Below are positions 1 to 6,902 of a DNA stretch of 64,000 nucleotides, in pieces. The stretch comes from Salegentibacter lacus (GTDB lineage: Bacteria; Bacteroidota; Bacteroidia; Flavobacteriales; Flavobacteriaceae), in the NCBI RefSeq assembly GCF_020164555.1, contig NZ_JAIQZB010000012.1, forward strand, positions 1-64,000. The letters are read 5' to 3'. The notes under the pieces were generated by a model. The model had not been told where the DNA came from. It ran no database searches and worked only from the letters and a program-made list of their open reading frames with translations. The number at the start of each line of letters is the position of its first letter. Position 1 is the stretch's first letter. The translations under genes and the position numbers were made by a program.

Positions 1-334
1 GACCTAGGCCGCTGTTTTCTTTTAACCTGCCTTTATGCTTCCCAAGATTAACCTCACAAGTATCCTGAATGCAAAGTAAGTCTCTTCCAAATGATAAGCT
101 TTTTGTTCGAGAAGAGGCCTCTTTCACTAACTGCTCTTCCCTTGTCCTTTCATTGTTCAAGAGGCGGTAAAATGCTTTTTGTTCCGCATTGTTGGAAGCA
201 ATTTTCCGTATGGAAGAACTGGGACGATCACTTAATTTTTTCCATAATTGCTGACATCTTCGTTCTAAACGAGGGTCAGACAGATATCCCGAATAGTTCG
301 GGAAAAACCCATGAGTATCTTCAGTTATATTCAT
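1..334 (-). CDS. IS4-family (Tn5-like) transposase, N-terminal part, cut by window edge
   Basis: Reading the minus strand from an ATG at 334 gives 111 residues with no stop before the window edge. The ATG is preceded by TTTTAGGAG, a good ribosome site. The protein starts with the pattern of the Tn5/IS4 transposase N-terminal DNA-binding domain (DPRLERR near residue 20, SIRKIASNNAEQKAFYRLL at 41-59) and reaches the first acidic residue of the DDE catalytic core in CIQDTCEVNL (D91). The enzyme would cut and paste its own insertion sequence. The rest of the element lies outside the window, so I cannot say whether it is intact. A perfect 10-base palindrome (tgtgtacaca, 354-363) just upstream may belong to the element end. 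Confidence 0.85.
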   Translation of the reverse strand, partial: MNITEDTHGFFPNYSGYLSDPRLERRCQQLWKKLSDRPSSSIRKIASNNAEQKAFYRLLNNERTREEQLVKEASSRTKSLSFGRDLLCIQDTCEVNLGKHKGRLKENSGLG

Positions 335-353
335 ACTCCTAAAATAGTACATT

Positions 354-363
354 TGTGTACACA
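354..363. repeat. 10-bp palindrome, possible IS end
   Basis: The sequence tgtgtacaca is a perfect palindrome 20 bases upstream of the transposase start. It may be part of the terminal inverted repeat or an operator. The other end of the element is not in the window, so it cannot be compared. Confidence 0.3.
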
Positions 364-408
364 CGGTAGCTTATTTTCAAGGGGAGGTGGCCGCGGGTCG
401 GAGGGTTT

Positions 409-2391: not shown

Positions 2392-3372
2392 TTAAAGCAT
2401 AAAAACTTCTTTATTATGCCATTTTAAAGCTTCTTGAGACGGGAACCATTCTTCTTTTTTGGGTAATAAAATCTGCTTACCTTCAAAATTGGAGAGGGAA
2501 AAACTAGAATTTTCTTCTTCTATTGTTGGAGAAATTCTAACTAGGAAATCTGAATTAATTGTTATTAAACCTCGATCAAAAGCGCGGTGAAGCGTTGGGG
2601 ATAAAGCTATACCATTTGTTACAGTATCGTCATTTGAAATACTGAAGGGATAAATATGGCAGGCGTCCACCATTTGGATATTATGAGATGAATTTATTTT
2701 TAAACCTGAAATACAGCACGTGTAATCGTAAATTTTAGGAACTGTTCTTTTAAATAAGCCTCCACGAACAAAAATTTCTTCTTCAAACTCATTTTCTTGT
2801 AAAGTTTCTTTTAACTGCTTAATGTGATTCTGATAAAGTTCACTGGGCTCGTTTAGAATTTCATTTTCAATTTTATCTTCTTCGTAATACCTATCTGGTC
2901 TTAAATAATTAACCTTAAAATCTGGGAAATAAGATTCGATTAAAAACTGTTCAAACCATAGCAGATTTTCGGGCTGCTGAAGTAATAAAAAGAACTCCTT
3001 GTCAATTTCAGCAAAAGCAATAGATTCATTTAAATTATTAAAGCTTTTAATACTTTTAGAACGGGTTGTCTCTATTCGTTTTCCCGGTTTTGCTACTAAA
3101 TACCAGAAGGGTTCTGATCTCATATGAAAAAAAGGTAGTGCAAAATTTCGAGAATGATCGGTGTGTACCAATTGCTCCCAATTTTGTTTAAATGCCAGAA
3201 GAATTTCTGATGTAATGAAAATTCGATTCGAGGTTATTTTTCCTTTAGCAATTAATTGAATTATGGTAAGTAGAAGTATAGGTTTATGAGGTGCCCTGCC
3301 AAGCTTTTTATTAAAACCCCGGTTAAGTTTTTTGAAATAGTTCAAGTATTTAAAGATTAACTCTTCTGACAT
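2392..3372 (-). CDS. HNH endonuclease, McrA-like, third gene of the helicase operon
   Basis: 326 residues. The C-terminal part is an HNH_2-type (PF13391-like) nuclease: CCISG (219-223), VDACHIYPFS (235-244, with the general-base H239), NG at 253-254 and LHRAFDRG (261-268). This is the arrangement of ScoMcrA-type enzymes. The N-terminal 90 residues (GRAPHKPILLL at 25-35, LPFFHMRSEPFW at 79-90) resemble the domain in front of HNH in McrA-like type IV enzymes, where it can read modified DNA; that link is inference. The ATG lies 3 bases after the helicase stop, so the two are surely co-transcribed. Predicted role: DNA cleavage in a restriction or defence setting. Confidence 0.88.
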   Translation of the reverse strand: MSEELIFKYLNYFKKLNRGFNKKLGRAPHKPILLLTIIQLIAKGKITSNRIFITSEILLAFKQNWEQLVHTDHSRNFALPFFHMRSEPFWYLVAKPGKRIETTRSKSIKSFNNLNESIAFAEIDKEFFLLLQQPENLLWFEQFLIESYFPDFKVNYLRPDRYYEEDKIENEILNEPSELYQNHIKQLKETLQENEFEEEIFVRGGLFKRTVPKIYDYTCCISGLKINSSHNIQMVDACHIYPFSISNDDTVTNGIALSPTLHRAFDRGLITINSDFLVRISPTIEEENSSFSLSNFEGKQILLPKKEEWFPSQEALKWHNKEVFML

Positions 3373-3375
3373 ATT

Positions 3376-6300
3376 TTAACCAACAGCTAATTTCTGACTT
3401 TCCTTTAAAATATAAGACGGCATTTCTTCGTGCAATCTCCATTCAACGTTCATTGGTTTAGCTCCTTTCGATTTCACGAAATCTGCTTCTCCTAAAAAGG
3501 TGTAAGACATTGTAAAACCGTATTCATCTACATTCTGTTCTCTAACAAACAAGAGTATCTTTTTGCCTTTTTCGCGATGTTTAATATAGGATTCGCCTTT
3601 TGGAGAATCTGGCGCAGTACTGTTTTGGGATTGCCAGTGAAAAAGTTGTTTATTTAATGCATAATCTTCATACATCGTAGTAGGGGAATACTCTTTCTCA
3701 GTTTTCTTAAGAGTAACAAATAATGCTTCAATGTTCAATTCCTTGTTTTGAGCCACGCCTTCACGATTTGATGATTTTTTCTGAAAAGTACTCAATCCTA
3801 AAGAAGCTAAAATTTCTTCCCGATTATATCTGCTGTGTAGTTTTAATGCGAATGGAAATTCTAAATCTATATCTTTTTCGACAAATTCAATTTGTTCAAC
3901 CTGATGTTGAATAAATTCTTGCATCTCTTTAAGCATTATTTTATTCTTGCTTAAAGTTTCAATACTCGTTGTAAGATCTGTGAATTTTAATTTTTCGCCA
4001 CTTTCTTGCCATAGGTCATAATGAAACATAAGAAGCATCATTTCCTGCTTTTTTGAGAGCAGTCTTAAGTTTAAATCATTGTTGATTAATTCTTGAATAA
4101 ATCTAAAGTAACTTAATGAGTTACAATTGATGAGTTTTCTTTGCATACACGCGGTAAACTCTTTTTCCTGTGGCTCTTTAAAATCGGGAATTACACCGGC
4201 GTCTGCACATAAACGTTTCCAGCTTCCTTTCTTGTAAATTTGCCGAATATCTAAGTGATGAAATTCCAGGAAATTATTCAAAGTAAGTGGTAGCGTAGAA
4301 TGATGTTTGAATGCTTTTATTTTTTGAAGAAGTTGTGGGCGTCTAAATTCTGTTGCTTCGCGAATATTCTTTAGAATTACTTCTTTTGCCTTTTTCTCCA
4401 GAACGATAGAACATCCAAGGGGTAAATGTGGAAACTCGTCTTCAATTTCCCTAATTATTGAAGTGTGAGTTTTGCCAACAAGTGCGCGGAATTTATGTTC
4501 AAAGTCATATTCCGGGCGAGCATTTCCAACAAAATCAAGAACAGTTAAACAGTCTTTGTTCTCGGCAAGCCGAAGTCCACGACCTAATTGCTGTAGGAAT
4601 ACAGTTAAACTTTCAGTAGGCCTCAGAAAGAGAACTGTGTCAATATTAGGAATATCAACTCCCTCGTTAAAAATATCTACCACAAAAAGATAATTTATAT
4701 CCTTTCGAAGTAGTTTATTCCGAATTACATCTCTCGAACTACTATTGCCACTTACCAGATAATCAGCTTTAAGATTGGCGAGTGTGAATTTTTCTGCCAT
4801 AAATTTTGCGTGCTCCTGGCTTACACAAAACCCCAAAGCTTGCACATTATTTATATCGGTTAAATATTCTTCGCAGTTTTTAATAATATCGGCAACTCGG
4901 TGATCATCTTCGGTATATAGTTTAGTGAGTTCTCTAATTTCGTACTTACCATTCCATTTCACATTACTTAAATCAACTGTATCAGAAAGTGCAAAGTATT
5001 GAAAAGGGCTAAGCAGTTTTCTATTTAGTGCTTCAGGTAATCTTATTTCGGCTGCTATTTTATTATGAAAATCTTCTGTAATATCTCCACCATCCATTCT
5101 TTCCGGAGTGGCGGTAAGTCCTAGTAAGATTTCAGGTTCAAAACGATGAAGTATTGGACGGTAGCTGTTTGCTTTTATATGATGAACTTCATCTACAATT
5201 ATGTAATCAAAAAAGCTTTCAGCTAACTCAATATTTTCCAAACGGCTATGCAATGTCTGGACCGAAGCAAAAAGATGGTTATATCTTTCAGGCTCATAAC
5301 CATCTACCCATAATTCCCCAAAATTGGCATCTCTTAGCACGTGTTGAAAAGTTGCTTGCGCTTGTTGAAGAATTTCTTTTCGGTGTGCTACAAATAAGAA
5401 ATTTGCATTTGGTTTTTTGTCTTTAAACCTTTTAAAATCGAAAGCAGAAATAACAGTTTTTCCGGTACCTGTAGCCGCGACTAATAAGTTTTTATTTCGG
5501 TTATGAATTTCTCTTTCTGCCTGTAATTTTGATAAAATTTCTTCCTGATATGGATAAGGTTTAAGATCAAAGAAAGTGCTAATTTGATTCGTTTTATGGG
5601 TGTTTTCTCTGTTGAGAGCTTTACTTAGCTTTATGCGATGAGTTTGATATTTGTAGTTTTCAAACTCCGGATCTTCCCAATATGTTTCAAAAGTTTTTTG
5701 AAATTTATCAATGATATGTCCAATTTCCTGGGTGGTAACTTTAAGGTTCCATTCTAAACCATTGGTTAGTGCAGAGCGTGAAAGATTAGAAGACCCAATA
5801 TAACCGGTATGAAAACTTGAATTTCGAAGAAATAAATATGCTTTGGCGTGCAACCTTTCGTGCTCTGAATTATAAGAAACCTTTATTTCGGTATTCGGTA
5901 ACGATGAGAGGTATTCTACAGCTTTTACATCTGTAGCACCCATATATGAAGTTGTAATGATTTTTAGTTTTCTACCGCTTCTGGTAAATTCTTCAAGTTC
6001 CTTTTTAAATATTCTAATGCCAGAAAATTTAATGAAAGAGACTAACCAGCAAATTTCGTCAGCAGAAAGAATTTCTTTTTTAATCTCGCTTTCCAGGGAA
6101 ATTCCTACATTATTTCCGGTAAAAAGTTCACTTTGGCTTAATCGAGTATAAGGTGTAATTTCTTTCAACCTCGCTTCCAAATTTGAATAGGGAAAATCTA
6201 GTTTTGAAAATACCGCTTGTAAAATCCTCCCTTCATTTTCAATTAAATTATCTGAAAATTCAACATTTTTGAGCTCTTCAACTAGTAAGCTAATAATTTT

Positions 6301-6519
6301 GTTCGATAGTTCAATCTGTTTTAAAGGGCGGTCTTTGTCTTTGATTTCATTTAGTGCAAACTTGATGGTTTCAGACAAATAAGTACTTAAGTACTGAGAA
6401 GCTTCTTCTTTATCTAAAGCTGATTCACTGACGTGGAACTTTTGTAAATCGACATCTTCAAGTTTATTGGACACTAATTTGGTAATTAGTTGTTCGTAAA
6501 GACCGGTTTCAAAACTCAT
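3376..6519 (-). CDS. PLD-nuclease / DEAD-box SF2 helicase / DUF3427 fusion
   Basis: 1047 residues in three parts. Residues about 140-290 form a phospholipase-D-type nuclease domain with a single HxK motif (H224, K226) and GSSN (242-245). Residues about 320-680 are an SF2 helicase: Walker A AATGTGKT (348-355), DEVH (443-446), TATPE (469-473), QQLGRGLR (643-650). The rest (about 700-1040) fits DUF3427, which is found behind such helicases. The N-terminal 130 residues are unassigned and helical. The start overlaps the NUDIX stop by 4 bases (ATGA). All helicase motifs look intact. Likely an ATP-driven DNA-unwinding or translocating nuclease. The biological role is not established; the operon setting suggests DNA defence or repair. 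Confidence 0.93.
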   Translation of the reverse strand: MSFETGLYEQLITKLVSNKLEDVDLQKFHVSESALDKEEASQYLSTYLSETIKFALNEIKDKDRPLKQIELSNKIISLLVEELKNVEFSDNLIENEGRILQAVFSKLDFPYSNLEARLKEITPYTRLSQSELFTGNNVGISLESEIKKEILSADEICWLVSFIKFSGIRIFKKELEEFTRSGRKLKIITTSYMGATDVKAVEYLSSLPNTEIKVSYNSEHERLHAKAYLFLRNSSFHTGYIGSSNLSRSALTNGLEWNLKVTTQEIGHIIDKFQKTFETYWEDPEFENYKYQTHRIKLSKALNRENTHKTNQISTFFDLKPYPYQEEILSKLQAEREIHNRNKNLLVAATGTGKTVISAFDFKRFKDKKPNANFLFVAHRKEILQQAQATFQHVLRDANFGELWVDGYEPERYNHLFASVQTLHSRLENIELAESFFDYIIVDEVHHIKANSYRPILHRFEPEILLGLTATPERMDGGDITEDFHNKIAAEIRLPEALNRKLLSPFQYFALSDTVDLSNVKWNGKYEIRELTKLYTEDDHRVADIIKNCEEYLTDINNVQALGFCVSQEHAKFMAEKFTLANLKADYLVSGNSSSRDVIRNKLLRKDINYLFVVDIFNEGVDIPNIDTVLFLRPTESLTVFLQQLGRGLRLAENKDCLTVLDFVGNARPEYDFEHKFRALVGKTHTSIIREIEDEFPHLPLGCSIVLEKKAKEVILKNIREATEFRRPQLLQKIKAFKHHSTLPLTLNNFLEFHHLDIRQIYKKGSWKRLCADAGVIPDFKEPQEKEFTACMQRKLINCNSLSYFRFIQELINNDLNLRLLSKKQEMMLLMFHYDLWQESGEKLKFTDLTTSIETLSKNKIMLKEMQEFIQHQVEQIEFVEKDIDLEFPFALKLHSRYNREEILASLGLSTFQKKSSNREGVAQNKELNIEALFVTLKKTEKEYSPTTMYEDYALNKQLFHWQSQNSTAPDSPKGESYIKHREKGKKILLFVREQNVDEYGFTMSYTFLGEADFVKSKGAKPMNVEWRLHEEMPSYILKESQKLAVG

Positions 6520-6902
6520 TTATAATTTTTACAATAATAATTTACAATAGGAATATCTGCTTCTGCCCAATCTAAGGATTTTAAATTTTGAATATCTAAC
6601 CATTCAATTCGTGAATGCTCAAGTAGCAAAAAATTGAAAGTTTTTAATGAACAACGAAAAGGTATCAATTGGATTTCTTTCGATTCAGAATAGATATGTT
6701 CACTGATAGGTAATTGCGCCAGAATTTTAATTTCAACTCCCAATTCTTCTTTAATTTCTCTTATTAAGCATTCTTCATAAGTTTCTTCATCTACTTTTCC
6801 GCCAGGGAACTCCCATTTGTTGGGTAAATCCATTTTGCCGCTCCTTTGTGCGCATAAAATTTTGCCATTATGTTCAATAATAGCGCAAGAAACCTTTATC
6901 AT
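6516..6902 (-). CDS. NUDIX (MutT-like) nucleoside triphosphate pyrophosphohydrolase
   Basis: 128 residues with a perfect Nudix box at 34-56 (G-x5-E-x7-REIKEELGV). The surroundings (CAQRSGKMDLPNKWEFPGG, KSLDWAEADIPIV) match the (deoxy)nucleoside triphosphate pyrophosphohydrolase group of MutT-like proteins. It would hydrolyse a modified or ordinary NTP to NMP and pyrophosphate. It is the first gene of the three-gene operon; its stop overlaps the helicase ATG. Translational coupling to a nuclease-helicase suggests a role other than general nucleotide sanitation. The exact substrate cannot be told. Confidence 0.92.
   Translation of the reverse strand: MIKVSCAIIEHNGKILCAQRSGKMDLPNKWEFPGGKVDEETYEECLIREIKEELGVEIKILAQLPISEHIYSESKEIQLIPFRCSLKTFNFLLLEHSRIEWLDIQNLKSLDWAEADIPIVNYYCKNYK

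What the first reader, a model, noticed from the sequence alone, without database searches (positions are those of the whole stretch)
2392..6902. NUDIX + PLD-helicase-DUF3427 + HNH operon: candidate uncharacterised DNA-defence module
Three enzymes (nucleotide hydrolase; nuclease-helicase; HNH nuclease) are translated from one tight operon: a 4-base ATGA overlap, then a 3-base gap. All catalytic motifs look intact. The set does not match a named system that I can recall: helicases of the Hachiman, DISARM and Zorya systems have different partners. A NUDIX enzyme coupled to two nucleases could clear a nucleotide signal or phage-modified dNTPs. It sits between an IS fragment and palindromic repeats.
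Basis: partly seen in the sequence, partly recalled or inferred. Interest (0 to 1): 0.78.

Follow-up and report, generated by a model that had tools for sequence, protein, structure and literature searches.

The report
DNA-cutting defence enzyme with nucleotide cleaner
A bacterial operon pairs a nuclease that probably destroys DNA carrying methylated or hydroxymethylated cytosine with a small enzyme that probably removes those same altered cytosines from the cell's nucleotide supply, perhaps so that the cell does not build them into its own DNA and cut itself.

Summary
The three-gene operon is real, at the stated coordinates. The helicase is a relative of SauUSI (PDB 7CLG), the ATP-dependent type IV enzyme that cuts 5mC/5hmC DNA. 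The HNH protein has a sulfur-binding domain, like phosphorothioate-dependent type IV enzymes. So this is a modification-dependent restriction operon, not an unnamed system. The newer part is the NUDIX gene. It lies directly upstream, usually overlapping by four bases, in 55 of 77 assessable close-relative loci, in 20 of 44 genomes with a match in an even phylum draw, and next to S. aureus SauUSI itself, where its product is PDB 5X1X. The NUDIX is NudG-like. A related B. fragilis enzyme (3GWY) is reported to hydrolyse 5-methyl- and 5-hydroxymethyl-dCTP, and 9 of 9 nearest Bacteroidota relatives of 3GWY found here precede a SauUSI-like gene. Best reading: the NUDIX clears the modified dCTPs whose DNA form the nuclease attacks, guarding the host against self-restriction (or starving phages). 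Against: many SauUSI relatives lack it, NudG-like genes also occur elsewhere, one relative keeps the nuclease with a broken NUDIX, and SauUSI works alone in E. coli. The HNH gene is an optional neighbour. No activity was tested here.

The parts
6516..6902 (-). NUDIX hydrolase, NudG-like (128 aa); proposed 5-methyl-/5-hydroxymethyl-dCTP pyrophosphatase; first gene
   Evidence: Pfam NUDIX 1.7e-17; best NCBIfam match PRK10546 (NudG) 8.5e-23 but under its cut-off; PADLOC PDC-S07 4e-44; PDB 5X1X 9.5e-28, 3GWY 1.2e-17
6516..6519 (-). ATGA overlap of NUDIX stop and helicase start (suggests translational coupling)
   Evidence: the same 4-base overlap in 55 of 92 linked loci counted
3376..6519 (-). SauUSI-like ATP-dependent type IV restriction enzyme (1047 aa)
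   Evidence: 7CLG 6.3e-85 over residues 136-1017; PADLOC mREase_IV 1.8e-218; Foldseek top hit 7CLG, E 1.6e-33, low TM-scores
5677..6081 (-). PLD nuclease domain (residues 147-281; H224, K226, N245, E256)
   Evidence: Pfam PLDc_2 2.1e-12; these four residues invariant in 20 aligned sequences
4507..5565 (-). SF2 ATPase/translocase (about residues 319-671; ATGTGKT, DExH)
   Evidence: Pfam ResIII, Helicase_C; motifs invariant
3403..3993 (-). DUF3427: target recognition region (about residues 843-1039; F934, D952, W962 align with SauUSI F841, D858, W868)
   Evidence: Pfam 3.1e-29; alignment; pocket residues from PMC7913695 passages; D952 and W962 invariant in 20, F934 in at least 90%
2392..3372 (-). 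SBD-HNH protein (326 aa): putative phosphorothioate-dependent type IV enzyme; accessory gene
   Evidence: SBDHga1 8H0L 6.1e-15; Foldseek 8H0L 2.7e-9, 5ZMO 2.0e-3; NF045808 1.7e-32 but 112.7 bits against cut-off 180
2974..3354 (-). Sulfur-binding domain (residues 7-133; H29, K30, P80 correspond to ScoMcrA H116, R117, P165 by my reading of the motifs)
2554..2718 (-). HNH nuclease domain (residues 219-273)
   Evidence: Pfam HNH_2 4.3e-12

Best explanation
[quoted passage not shown] Its core is a SauUSI-like enzyme that recognises 5-methyl- or 5-hydroxymethylcytosine in DNA, translocates with ATP and cuts the DNA with a PLD nuclease. [quoted passage not shown] It keeps the cell's dCTP pool free of the base whose DNA form the nuclease attacks, so that nucleotides released from degraded foreign DNA, or made by phage kinases, are not built into the host chromosome and do not cause self-restriction. 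The SBD-HNH protein is an accessory enzyme that adds restriction of phosphorothioate DNA. SHOWN here: homology, domain order, conserved residues, gene overlap, recurrent linkage. SHOWN by others: SauUSI specificity; 3GWY activity on 5-Me-dCTP and 5-hydroxymethyl-dCTP. INFERRED: activities of these three proteins, and the guard role.
For: Helicase: 7CLG 6.3e-85; mREase_IV 1.8e-218; SRA pocket residues D952 and W962 kept. Linkage: NUDIX directly upstream in 55 of 77 assessable close-relative loci; 14 of 17 assessable genomes of the even family draw, own genome included; 20 of 44 genomes with a match in the even phylum draw, two of the 44 not assessable (my count); 11 of 11 intact Bacteroidota loci of the SauUSI-proper branch against 0 of 12 other SF2 helicase loci. 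These sets overlap. By clusters at 80% identity, 39 of 80 all linked, 5 mixed, 36 not. 55 of 92 linked pairs overlap by 4 bases, 84 of 92 lie within -30 to +15. NUDIX and helicase distances correlate (Spearman 0.76, n=92; 500 permutations, maximum 0.20). S. aureus: the NUDIX ends 1 base before a frame identical to 7CLG over 655 residues and is 5X1X, 130 of 130. Substrate: 3GWY/Q5LBB1 kcat/Km 4.8e6 on 5-Me-dCTP and 4.4e6 on 5-hydroxymethyl-dCTP (PMC5158307); its nearest Bacteroidota relatives are SauUSI partners, 9 of 9, eight of which are among the 11 above. Own genome: 0 matches to the C5-methylase family PF00145. 5-methyl-dCTP is incorporated by polymerases and phage kinases act on 5-methyl-dCMP (PMC10742078 passages).
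Against: The pair is not obligatory: no NUDIX in 22 of 77 close relatives, in 22 of 44 phylum-draw genomes (some of them broken or partial genes), and in 11 of 16 opened plasmid-collection regions, among them 4 of 9 of the SauUSI-proper branch. SauUSI alone is active as a clone in E. coli (PMC3874153 passage), so the NUDIX is not needed for restriction there (E. coli has its own NudG). A genus-mate keeps open helicase and HNH frames beside a NUDIX with an in-frame stop. NudG-like genes also occur away from SauUSI: with the window NUDIX as query 11 of 30 opened loci were linked, and 19 of 19 unlinked ones keep E31, H96 and D116, so these residues mark the subfamily, not the partnership. One NUDIX of this kind is fused to a Schlafen-group-3 helicase instead. 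The window NUDIX is closer to 5X1X, whose substrate I do not know, than to 3GWY. SauUSI Glu126 aligns with Leu231 here. No activity was measured.
Confidence: 0.5

Rival explanations
1. Offensive reading: the NUDIX destroys the 5-hydroxymethyl-dCTP or 5-methyl-dCTP that some phages make for their own genomes, so the phage is hit twice, in the pool and in the DNA.
For: Same linkage and substrate evidence. [quoted passage not shown] a 2025 review names nucleotide-pool monitoring of 5hmdCTP as a possible detection point (PMC12707154 passage).
Against: A 128-aa hydrolase must outpace phage synthesis; if it succeeded, phage DNA would be less modified and escape the nuclease, so the two would partly cancel. 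I did not look for hmC phages of these mostly Bacteroidota hosts.
Confidence: 0.23
2. The NUDIX is an ordinary MutT/NudG house-cleaning enzyme carried along in defence islands, with no functional tie to the nuclease.
For: NudG-like genes exist unlinked in many Bacteroidota; PDC-S07 also matches three unlinked ones (L209, L230, L250) and a fusion with another helicase; 22 of 77 relatives lack it.
Against: Position directly upstream and overlapping, co-divergence, 11 of 11 in a second branch and 0 of 12 in control helicases, recurrence in Bacillota and 9 of 9 for the 3GWY group do not look like hitchhiking.
Confidence: 0.18
3. The NUDIX clears or senses a nucleotide signal, controlling the nuclease.
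For: Overlapping genes.
Against: No cyclase or other signal synthase lies in the three-gene operon; NudG-like residues E31 and D116 fit dNTP binding (recalled roles); the related 3GWY acts on 5-modified cytidine triphosphates.
Confidence: 0.05
4. All three genes form one obligatory three-part machine.
For: In six of six other loci of the genus the HNH gene follows the helicase, and seven of 80 wider loci have it directly downstream.
Against: Of 80 wider loci 70 show no full SBD-HNH within the stretch held; in L124, L127 and L131 it sits upstream or on the other strand.
Confidence: 0.04

Closest known systems
SauUSI (S. aureus, PDB 7CLG), type IV ATP-dependent 5mC/5hmC restriction enzyme
   Same: PLD nuclease, SF2 motor, C-terminal DUF3427 recognition region; homology over residues 136-1017. 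Its S. aureus gene also has a NUDIX directly upstream.
   Different: About 100 extra N-terminal residues; Glu126 position is Leu231. The passages I saw describe SauUSI as a single active polypeptide and do not mention a NUDIX.
Q5LBB1_BACFN / PDB 3GWY, B. fragilis Nudix hydrolase, and E. coli NudG (Orf135)
   Same: NudG-like Nudix family; 3GWY has the same residues at E31, H96 and D116; 3GWY and NudG are reported to hydrolyse 5-methyl-dCTP.
   Different: The window NUDIX is on another branch (nearest to 3GWY on the tree are mostly the SauUSI-proper partners); activity untested. I could not see the genomic neighbours of Q5LBB1.
SBD-HNH phosphorothioate-dependent enzymes (ScoMcrA, SprMcrA, EcoWI; SBDHga)
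   Same: SBD fold and sulfur cavity residues, HNH domain.
   Different: Under the NCBIfam NF045808 cut-off (112.7 of 180 bits); Y164 position is Leu79 by my reading.
PADLOC PDC-S07 (candidate defence NUDIX)
   Same: Window and S. aureus NUDIX match.
   Different: The model comes without a stated mechanism and also matches unlinked NudG-like genes.
T4 gp56 dCTPase plus C-specific endonucleases (recalled)
   Same: Logic: a pool enzyme removes the precursor of the base that the nuclease attacks.
   Different: Mirror image: in T4 the phage removes plain dCTP; unrelated proteins.

Membership tests
SauUSI-like type IV restriction enzymes | PLD-SF2-DUF3427 architecture and homology across all three | tested here: met
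SauUSI-like type IV restriction enzymes | HxK catalytic pair of the PLD domain (His119, Lys121) | tested here: met
   H224, K226 invariant in 20 sequences, also N245 and E256; motif from PMC7913695 passages
SauUSI-like type IV restriction enzymes | Glu126 of the H(X)K(X)4E motif (a motif of the prototype; I do not treat it as defining the family) | tested here: not met
   Aligned residue is Leu231; the consensus of relatives is not Glu either
SauUSI-like type IV restriction enzymes | SRA pocket: Asp858 and Trp868 | tested here: met
   D952, W962; Tyr831 falls in an alignment gap, so not placed
SauUSI-like type IV restriction enzymes | Cleavage dependent on 5mC/5hmC and ATP | not testable with these tools
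   needs enzyme
NudG-like 5-methyl-dCTP hydrolases | Nudix box | tested here: met
NudG-like 5-methyl-dCTP hydrolases | Glu33 and Asp118 of NudG (roles recalled) | tested here: met
   E31, D116 in 95 of 95 NUDIX taken from SauUSI loci and in 3GWY; 8 other NUDIX of the genome lack the pair; 19 unlinked NudG-like ones have it too
NudG-like 5-methyl-dCTP hydrolases | NCBIfam PRK10546 equivalog cut-off (156 bits) | tested here: not met
   80.7 bits: not filed as NudG itself
NudG-like 5-methyl-dCTP hydrolases | Hydrolysis of 5-methyl-dCTP | not testable with these tools
   known only for relatives
SBD-HNH phosphorothioate-dependent enzymes | SBD fold | tested here: met
   (model pLDDT about 90 over residues 1-90)
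SBD-HNH phosphorothioate-dependent enzymes | Sulfur cavity His, Arg/Lys, Pro | tested here: met
   H29, K30, P80 invariant in 11
SBD-HNH phosphorothioate-dependent enzymes | NF045808 curated cut-off | tested here: not met
   112.7 against 180 bits: works-like claim only
SBD-HNH phosphorothioate-dependent enzymes | Cleavage of phosphorothioate DNA | not testable with these tools
   needs enzyme

The most novel reading that the evidence does not exclude
Modification-dependent nucleases of the SauUSI family work as a pair with a pool enzyme that hydrolyses the triphosphate of the very base they attack. The NUDIX is the immunity part of a type IV system: the counterpart of a methyltransferase in types I to III, but acting on the precursor pool instead of on DNA. 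S. aureus SauUSI, with 5X1X next to it, would be the first studied case.
Probability: 0.4. Interest if true: 0.82.

Novelty: new variant of a known kind. Interest (0 to 1): 0.6.

Why it matters
Type IV enzymes have no partner methyltransferase, and how hosts avoid cutting themselves when modified nucleotides enter the pool is, as far as I know, seldom asked. Two solved structures without a settled cellular role (5X1X, 3GWY) and a well-studied restriction enzyme (SauUSI) would fall into one scheme that can be tested with purified enzymes. It would also give a function for a PADLOC candidate (PDC-S07). The pairing itself was noted once, in a figure legend for Streptococcus, without a function (PMC7641849).

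Tried and rejected
Hachiman, DISARM, Zorya: PADLOC gives no better model than mREase_IV; DrmC and DrmD matches are weak beside it. PbeA match (109 bits) rejected for the same reason. RadD-type repair helicase: 109 bits against a cut-off of 720. NUDIX fused to a SauUSI-like protein: none seen; the overlong helicase frames gave no NUDIX match as far as readable. A replacement nucleotide hydrolase in the 22 NUDIX-less close relatives: by eye only L126 has one, a Ham1-family gene (2.2e-56). The MazG-like gene of two lactobacilli as a second dCTP-pool partner of SauUSI: I first counted it as support; in L. plantarum it lies between the SauUSI-like gene and a Schlafen-group-3 helicase gene and may belong to the latter, so I no longer lean on it. 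The HNH stretch at the operon's site in genome G587 as a remnant: wrong, it is an open 254-aa HNH frame with another N-terminus. Finding the B. fragilis neighbourhood of Q5LBB1: three searches showed no near-identical gene. E31/H96/D116 as a mark of partnership: rejected. Helicase model: mean pLDDT 69.8, pTM 0.42, used only for the top-hit check. The HNH part of the other model is low confidence (residues 218-260 under 50). Odds were lowered a little (best 0.55 to 0.50, novel case 0.42 to 0.40) after this check, because of the MazG and fusion facts and the even-draw count.
Full report
WHAT IS THERE. Three minus-strand genes form a tight operon: NUDIX (6516-6902), a 1047-aa PLD-helicase-DUF3427 protein (3376-6519) and an HNH protein (2392-3372), with a 4-base overlap and a 3-base gap. 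Pfam finds each domain. The genome is probably a Salegentibacter: the best named relative of the helicase is in S. tibetensis, 95% identical; genome names are withheld, so this is inference.

THE HELICASE IS SauUSI-LIKE. phmmer against the PDB gives SauUSI (7CLG) at 6.3e-85 over residues 136-1017; PADLOC gives the type IV model mREase_IV at 1.8e-218; the predicted model's top two Foldseek hits are 7CLG chains (E 1.6e-33, 6.5e-33), with low TM-scores from a model of pTM 0.42. SauUSI is an ATP-dependent dimeric enzyme that cuts DNA with S-5mC-NGS sites, the cytosine being 5-methyl or 5-hydroxymethyl (PMC7913695, passages). Its modelled pocket residues Asp858 and Trp868 align with D952 and W962 here, both invariant in 20 aligned sequences; Phe841 aligns with F934. 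The PLD residues H224, K226, N245 and E256 are invariant, but SauUSI's Glu126 aligns with Leu231.

THE HNH PROTEIN IS SBD-HNH. Its N-terminus matches SBDHga1 (8H0L) at 6.1e-15; the model's best fold matches are sulfur-binding domains (8H0L 2.7e-9, 5ZMO 2.0e-3, SprMcrA structures). The ScoMcrA cavity residues His116, Arg117 (Lys in most homologues) and Pro165 (PMC6224610, passages) correspond, by my reading of the motifs, to H29, K30 and P80, invariant in 11 homologues. It falls short of the NCBIfam cut-off for such enzymes (112.7 of 180 bits), so I say it works like one and do not file it.

THE NUDIX IS THE INTERESTING PART. A profile scan reported 539 encoding stretches and kept the best 80, so that set leans to close relatives. 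Of these 80, 77 have more than 400 bases upstream of the helicase; 55 of 77 have the NUDIX directly upstream, 22 do not. Even draws are less favourable. In the family draw (199 genomes), 18 genomes hold a match at 7e-85 or better; one lies at a contig edge, and 14 of the other 17 are linked, own genome included. In the phylum draw (395 genomes), 44 have a match at 1e-40 or better; by my count are linked, 22 are not (several of these are broken or partial genes) and two sit at contig edges. A divergent branch, roughly 30-34% identical to the window protein where compared and nearer to SauUSI proper, has the NUDIX in 11 of 11 loci. I took as this branch intact frames of 971-1157 aa scoring 342-392 bits with my profile; L169 (895 aa, 299 bits), L167 and L168 (642 and 645 aa) and the pieces L170 and L175, all without NUDIX, were left out. 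Twelve loci of other SF2 helicases, used as control, have none. These sets overlap.

CO-DIVERGENCE AND SPACING. For one search I assembled 143 helicase rows from the fetched loci: some contigs occur twice, and truncated, overlong and duplicate loci, five loci at contig edges and one broken gene were left out. Of 143, 92 are linked; by clusters at 80% identity 39 of 80 are all linked, 5 mixed, 36 not. The tree needs at least 19 changes of state. NUDIX and helicase distances correlate (0.76; largest of 500 permutations 0.20). 55 of 92 pairs overlap by exactly 4 bases and 84 of 92 lie within -30 to +15, with starts taken mechanically.

BEYOND BACTEROIDOTA. I opened 16 regions of plasmid-collection hits, out of 21 and 26 records listed, which overlap. 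Five have the NUDIX before the SauUSI-like gene: Hymenobacter canadensis (itself Bacteroidota), Staphylococcus aureus, Latilactobacillus curvatus, Lactiplantibacillus plantarum, Limosilactobacillus fermentum (its nuclease frame is broken). Eleven do not: Pseudoalteromonas (three regions in two records), Rhodobacter, Hymenobacter swuensis, Peptoclostridium, Acetoanaerobium, Neotabrizicola, Spiroplasma, Arthrobacter, Fusobacterium (Spiroplasma reads TGA as Trp, so its miss under table 11 is weak). Within the SauUSI-proper branch that is 5 of 9. In S. aureus the nuclease frame is identical to 7CLG over 655 residues (it is cut short in this record), and the NUDIX one base upstream is identical to PDB 5X1X over all 130 residues. 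So the prototype itself has the partner. L. plantarum and L. fermentum also have a MazG-like gene downstream; the L. plantarum one matches a pyrophosphatase (4QGP, 1.7e-15) and dCTP pyrophosphatase 1 (4.5e-7). But in L. plantarum a Schlafen-group-3 helicase gene follows it, which may be its real partner.

SUBSTRATE. The window NUDIX hits 5X1X (9.5e-28), 3GWY (1.2e-17) and E. coli NudG 2RRK (5.8e-15) in the PDB. 3GWY is Q5LBB1 of B. fragilis: kcat/Km 4.8e6 on 5-Me-dCTP, 4.4e6 on 5-hydroxymethyl-dCTP, 6.7e6 on 5-Me-CTP, 8.5e4 on 5-OH-dCTP; the authors report large standard errors (PMC5158307, passages and section 18). NudG: 3e5 on 5-methyl-dCTP, quoted in PMC3744803 (passages). Reverse test: nine Bacteroidota loci matched 3GWY at the limits set (1 of 86 genomes, 8 of 395 including that one, 3 of 92 with two already counted); all nine have a SauUSI-like frame directly downstream. 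Eight of the nine are also among the 11 branch loci above, so the two counts are not independent. In plasmids 3 records matched; two are SauUSI partners, the third (Selenomonas pSRC2) is not and lies near a DUF262 gene. This is the strongest link between the pair and 5-modified dCTP. The same test with the window NUDIX is weaker: 69 of 395 genomes match (72 places listed); of 30 opened loci 11 are linked, own included, and 19 are not. Of the 42 not opened, nine coincide with SauUSI places listed. Linked and unlinked members share E31, H96 and D116 (92 of 92 and 19 of 19), so the subfamily, not the linkage, has these residues. Eight other NUDIX proteins of the genome lack the pair E31 with D116. 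One match is fused to a Schlafen-group-3 helicase (PADLOC PDC-S41) in a 790-aa protein, so this NUDIX type also serves another candidate defence enzyme.

HOW IT MOST LIKELY WORKS. A nuclease that attacks 5mC/5hmC in DNA is a danger to its host if the modified nucleotide gets into host DNA. 5-methyl-dCTP is incorporated by polymerases, its likely source is degraded methylated DNA, and phage kinases phosphorylate 5-methyl-dCMP and 5-hydroxymethyl-dCMP (PMC10742078 passages). The nuclease itself starts such degradation. A coupled pyrophosphatase for just these triphosphates would close the loop. The own genome has no match to the C5-methylase family PF00145 (10 of 14 control genomes have one), so modified cytosine would be foreign there. 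The offensive version, starving phages of hm-dCTP, uses the same chemistry and cannot be separated by sequence.

AGAINST. The pair is not universal. SauUSI alone is active as a clone in E. coli (PMC3874153 passage); E. coli has a NudG of its own, so this does not settle the guard idea. In one genus-mate the NUDIX carries an in-frame stop while the other two frames stay open; other NUDIX genes of the cell (nine PF00293 matches in the own genome) may cover for it.

INHERITANCE. In the genus, 7 of 15 genomes hold the helicase. In the six other loci the operon lies next to the DUF2805 gene, the CIA30 gene or the YaaA gene, as far as the held stretch reaches; in genome G587 the stretch beside CIA30 holds an open 254-aa HNH frame with a different N-terminus and no helicase or NUDIX match. 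This fits an old local defence locus with exchange and loss.

IN PRINT. The library (open-licence PMC papers) was searched for SauUSI with Nudix, pyrophosphohydrolase and MutT, for type IV restriction with Nudix, and for related terms. One relevant mention was found: a figure legend in PMC7641849 says the small DNA-repair proteins next to SauUSI homologues in Streptococcus are MutT homologues; that section's text gives no function. Two other joint hits were incidental (PMC7159879; PMC9146914, an author name). The 2011 SauUSI paper is not held. Most subscription papers and bioRxiv are outside this library, so the idea may exist elsewhere.

Noticed in passing
L259 1125-3497: A 790-aa protein fuses the same NUDIX type (PDC-S07) to a Schlafen-group-3 helicase (PDC-S41), with an HNH gene about 1.2 kb upstream on the same strand: another candidate defence enzyme with a built-in NUDIX.
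   Followed up: partly
L187 5398-7478; L189 5445-5756: A MazG-like gene follows the SauUSI-like gene on two lactobacilli plasmids; in L187 it precedes a GIY-YIG/Schlafen-group-3 helicase gene.
   Followed up: partly
L209 3992-7490: Selenomonas plasmid pSRC2: same NUDIX family near a nucleoside 2-deoxyribosyltransferase and a DUF262 gene, with no SauUSI-like gene annotated there.
   Followed up: no
L178 1118-1504: In one genus-mate the NUDIX has one in-frame stop while the SauUSI-like and SBD-HNH frames stay open.
   Followed up: partly
L064 1158-1877; L124 5123-5974: NUDIX-less SauUSI-like genes with a small PLD-like gene directly upstream (PLDc_2 5.1e-13 in L064; 9.7e-5, under the cut-off, in L124).
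   Followed up: partly
L126 5298-5957: A Ham1-family nucleotide pyrophosphatase gene lies 46 bases upstream of a NUDIX-less SauUSI-like gene.
   Followed up: partly
L192 1195-2220: NERD nuclease-domain gene upstream of a SauUSI-like gene on a Pseudoalteromonas plasmid.
   Followed up: no
L223 2440-3204: HNH gene with a different N-terminus but a C-terminal stretch 60% identical to the window HNH protein, at the operon's usual site in a genome where the helicase was not found.
   Followed up: partly
window 2-370: Transposase-like fragment (by recall, IS4-like) at the very end of the contig, probably an assembly break at an IS copy.
   Followed up: no
L127 4893-5840; L131 4614-5570: SBD-HNH gene adjacent to, but on the other strand from, the SauUSI-like gene: the two type IV enzymes meet in more than one arrangement.
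   Followed up: partly
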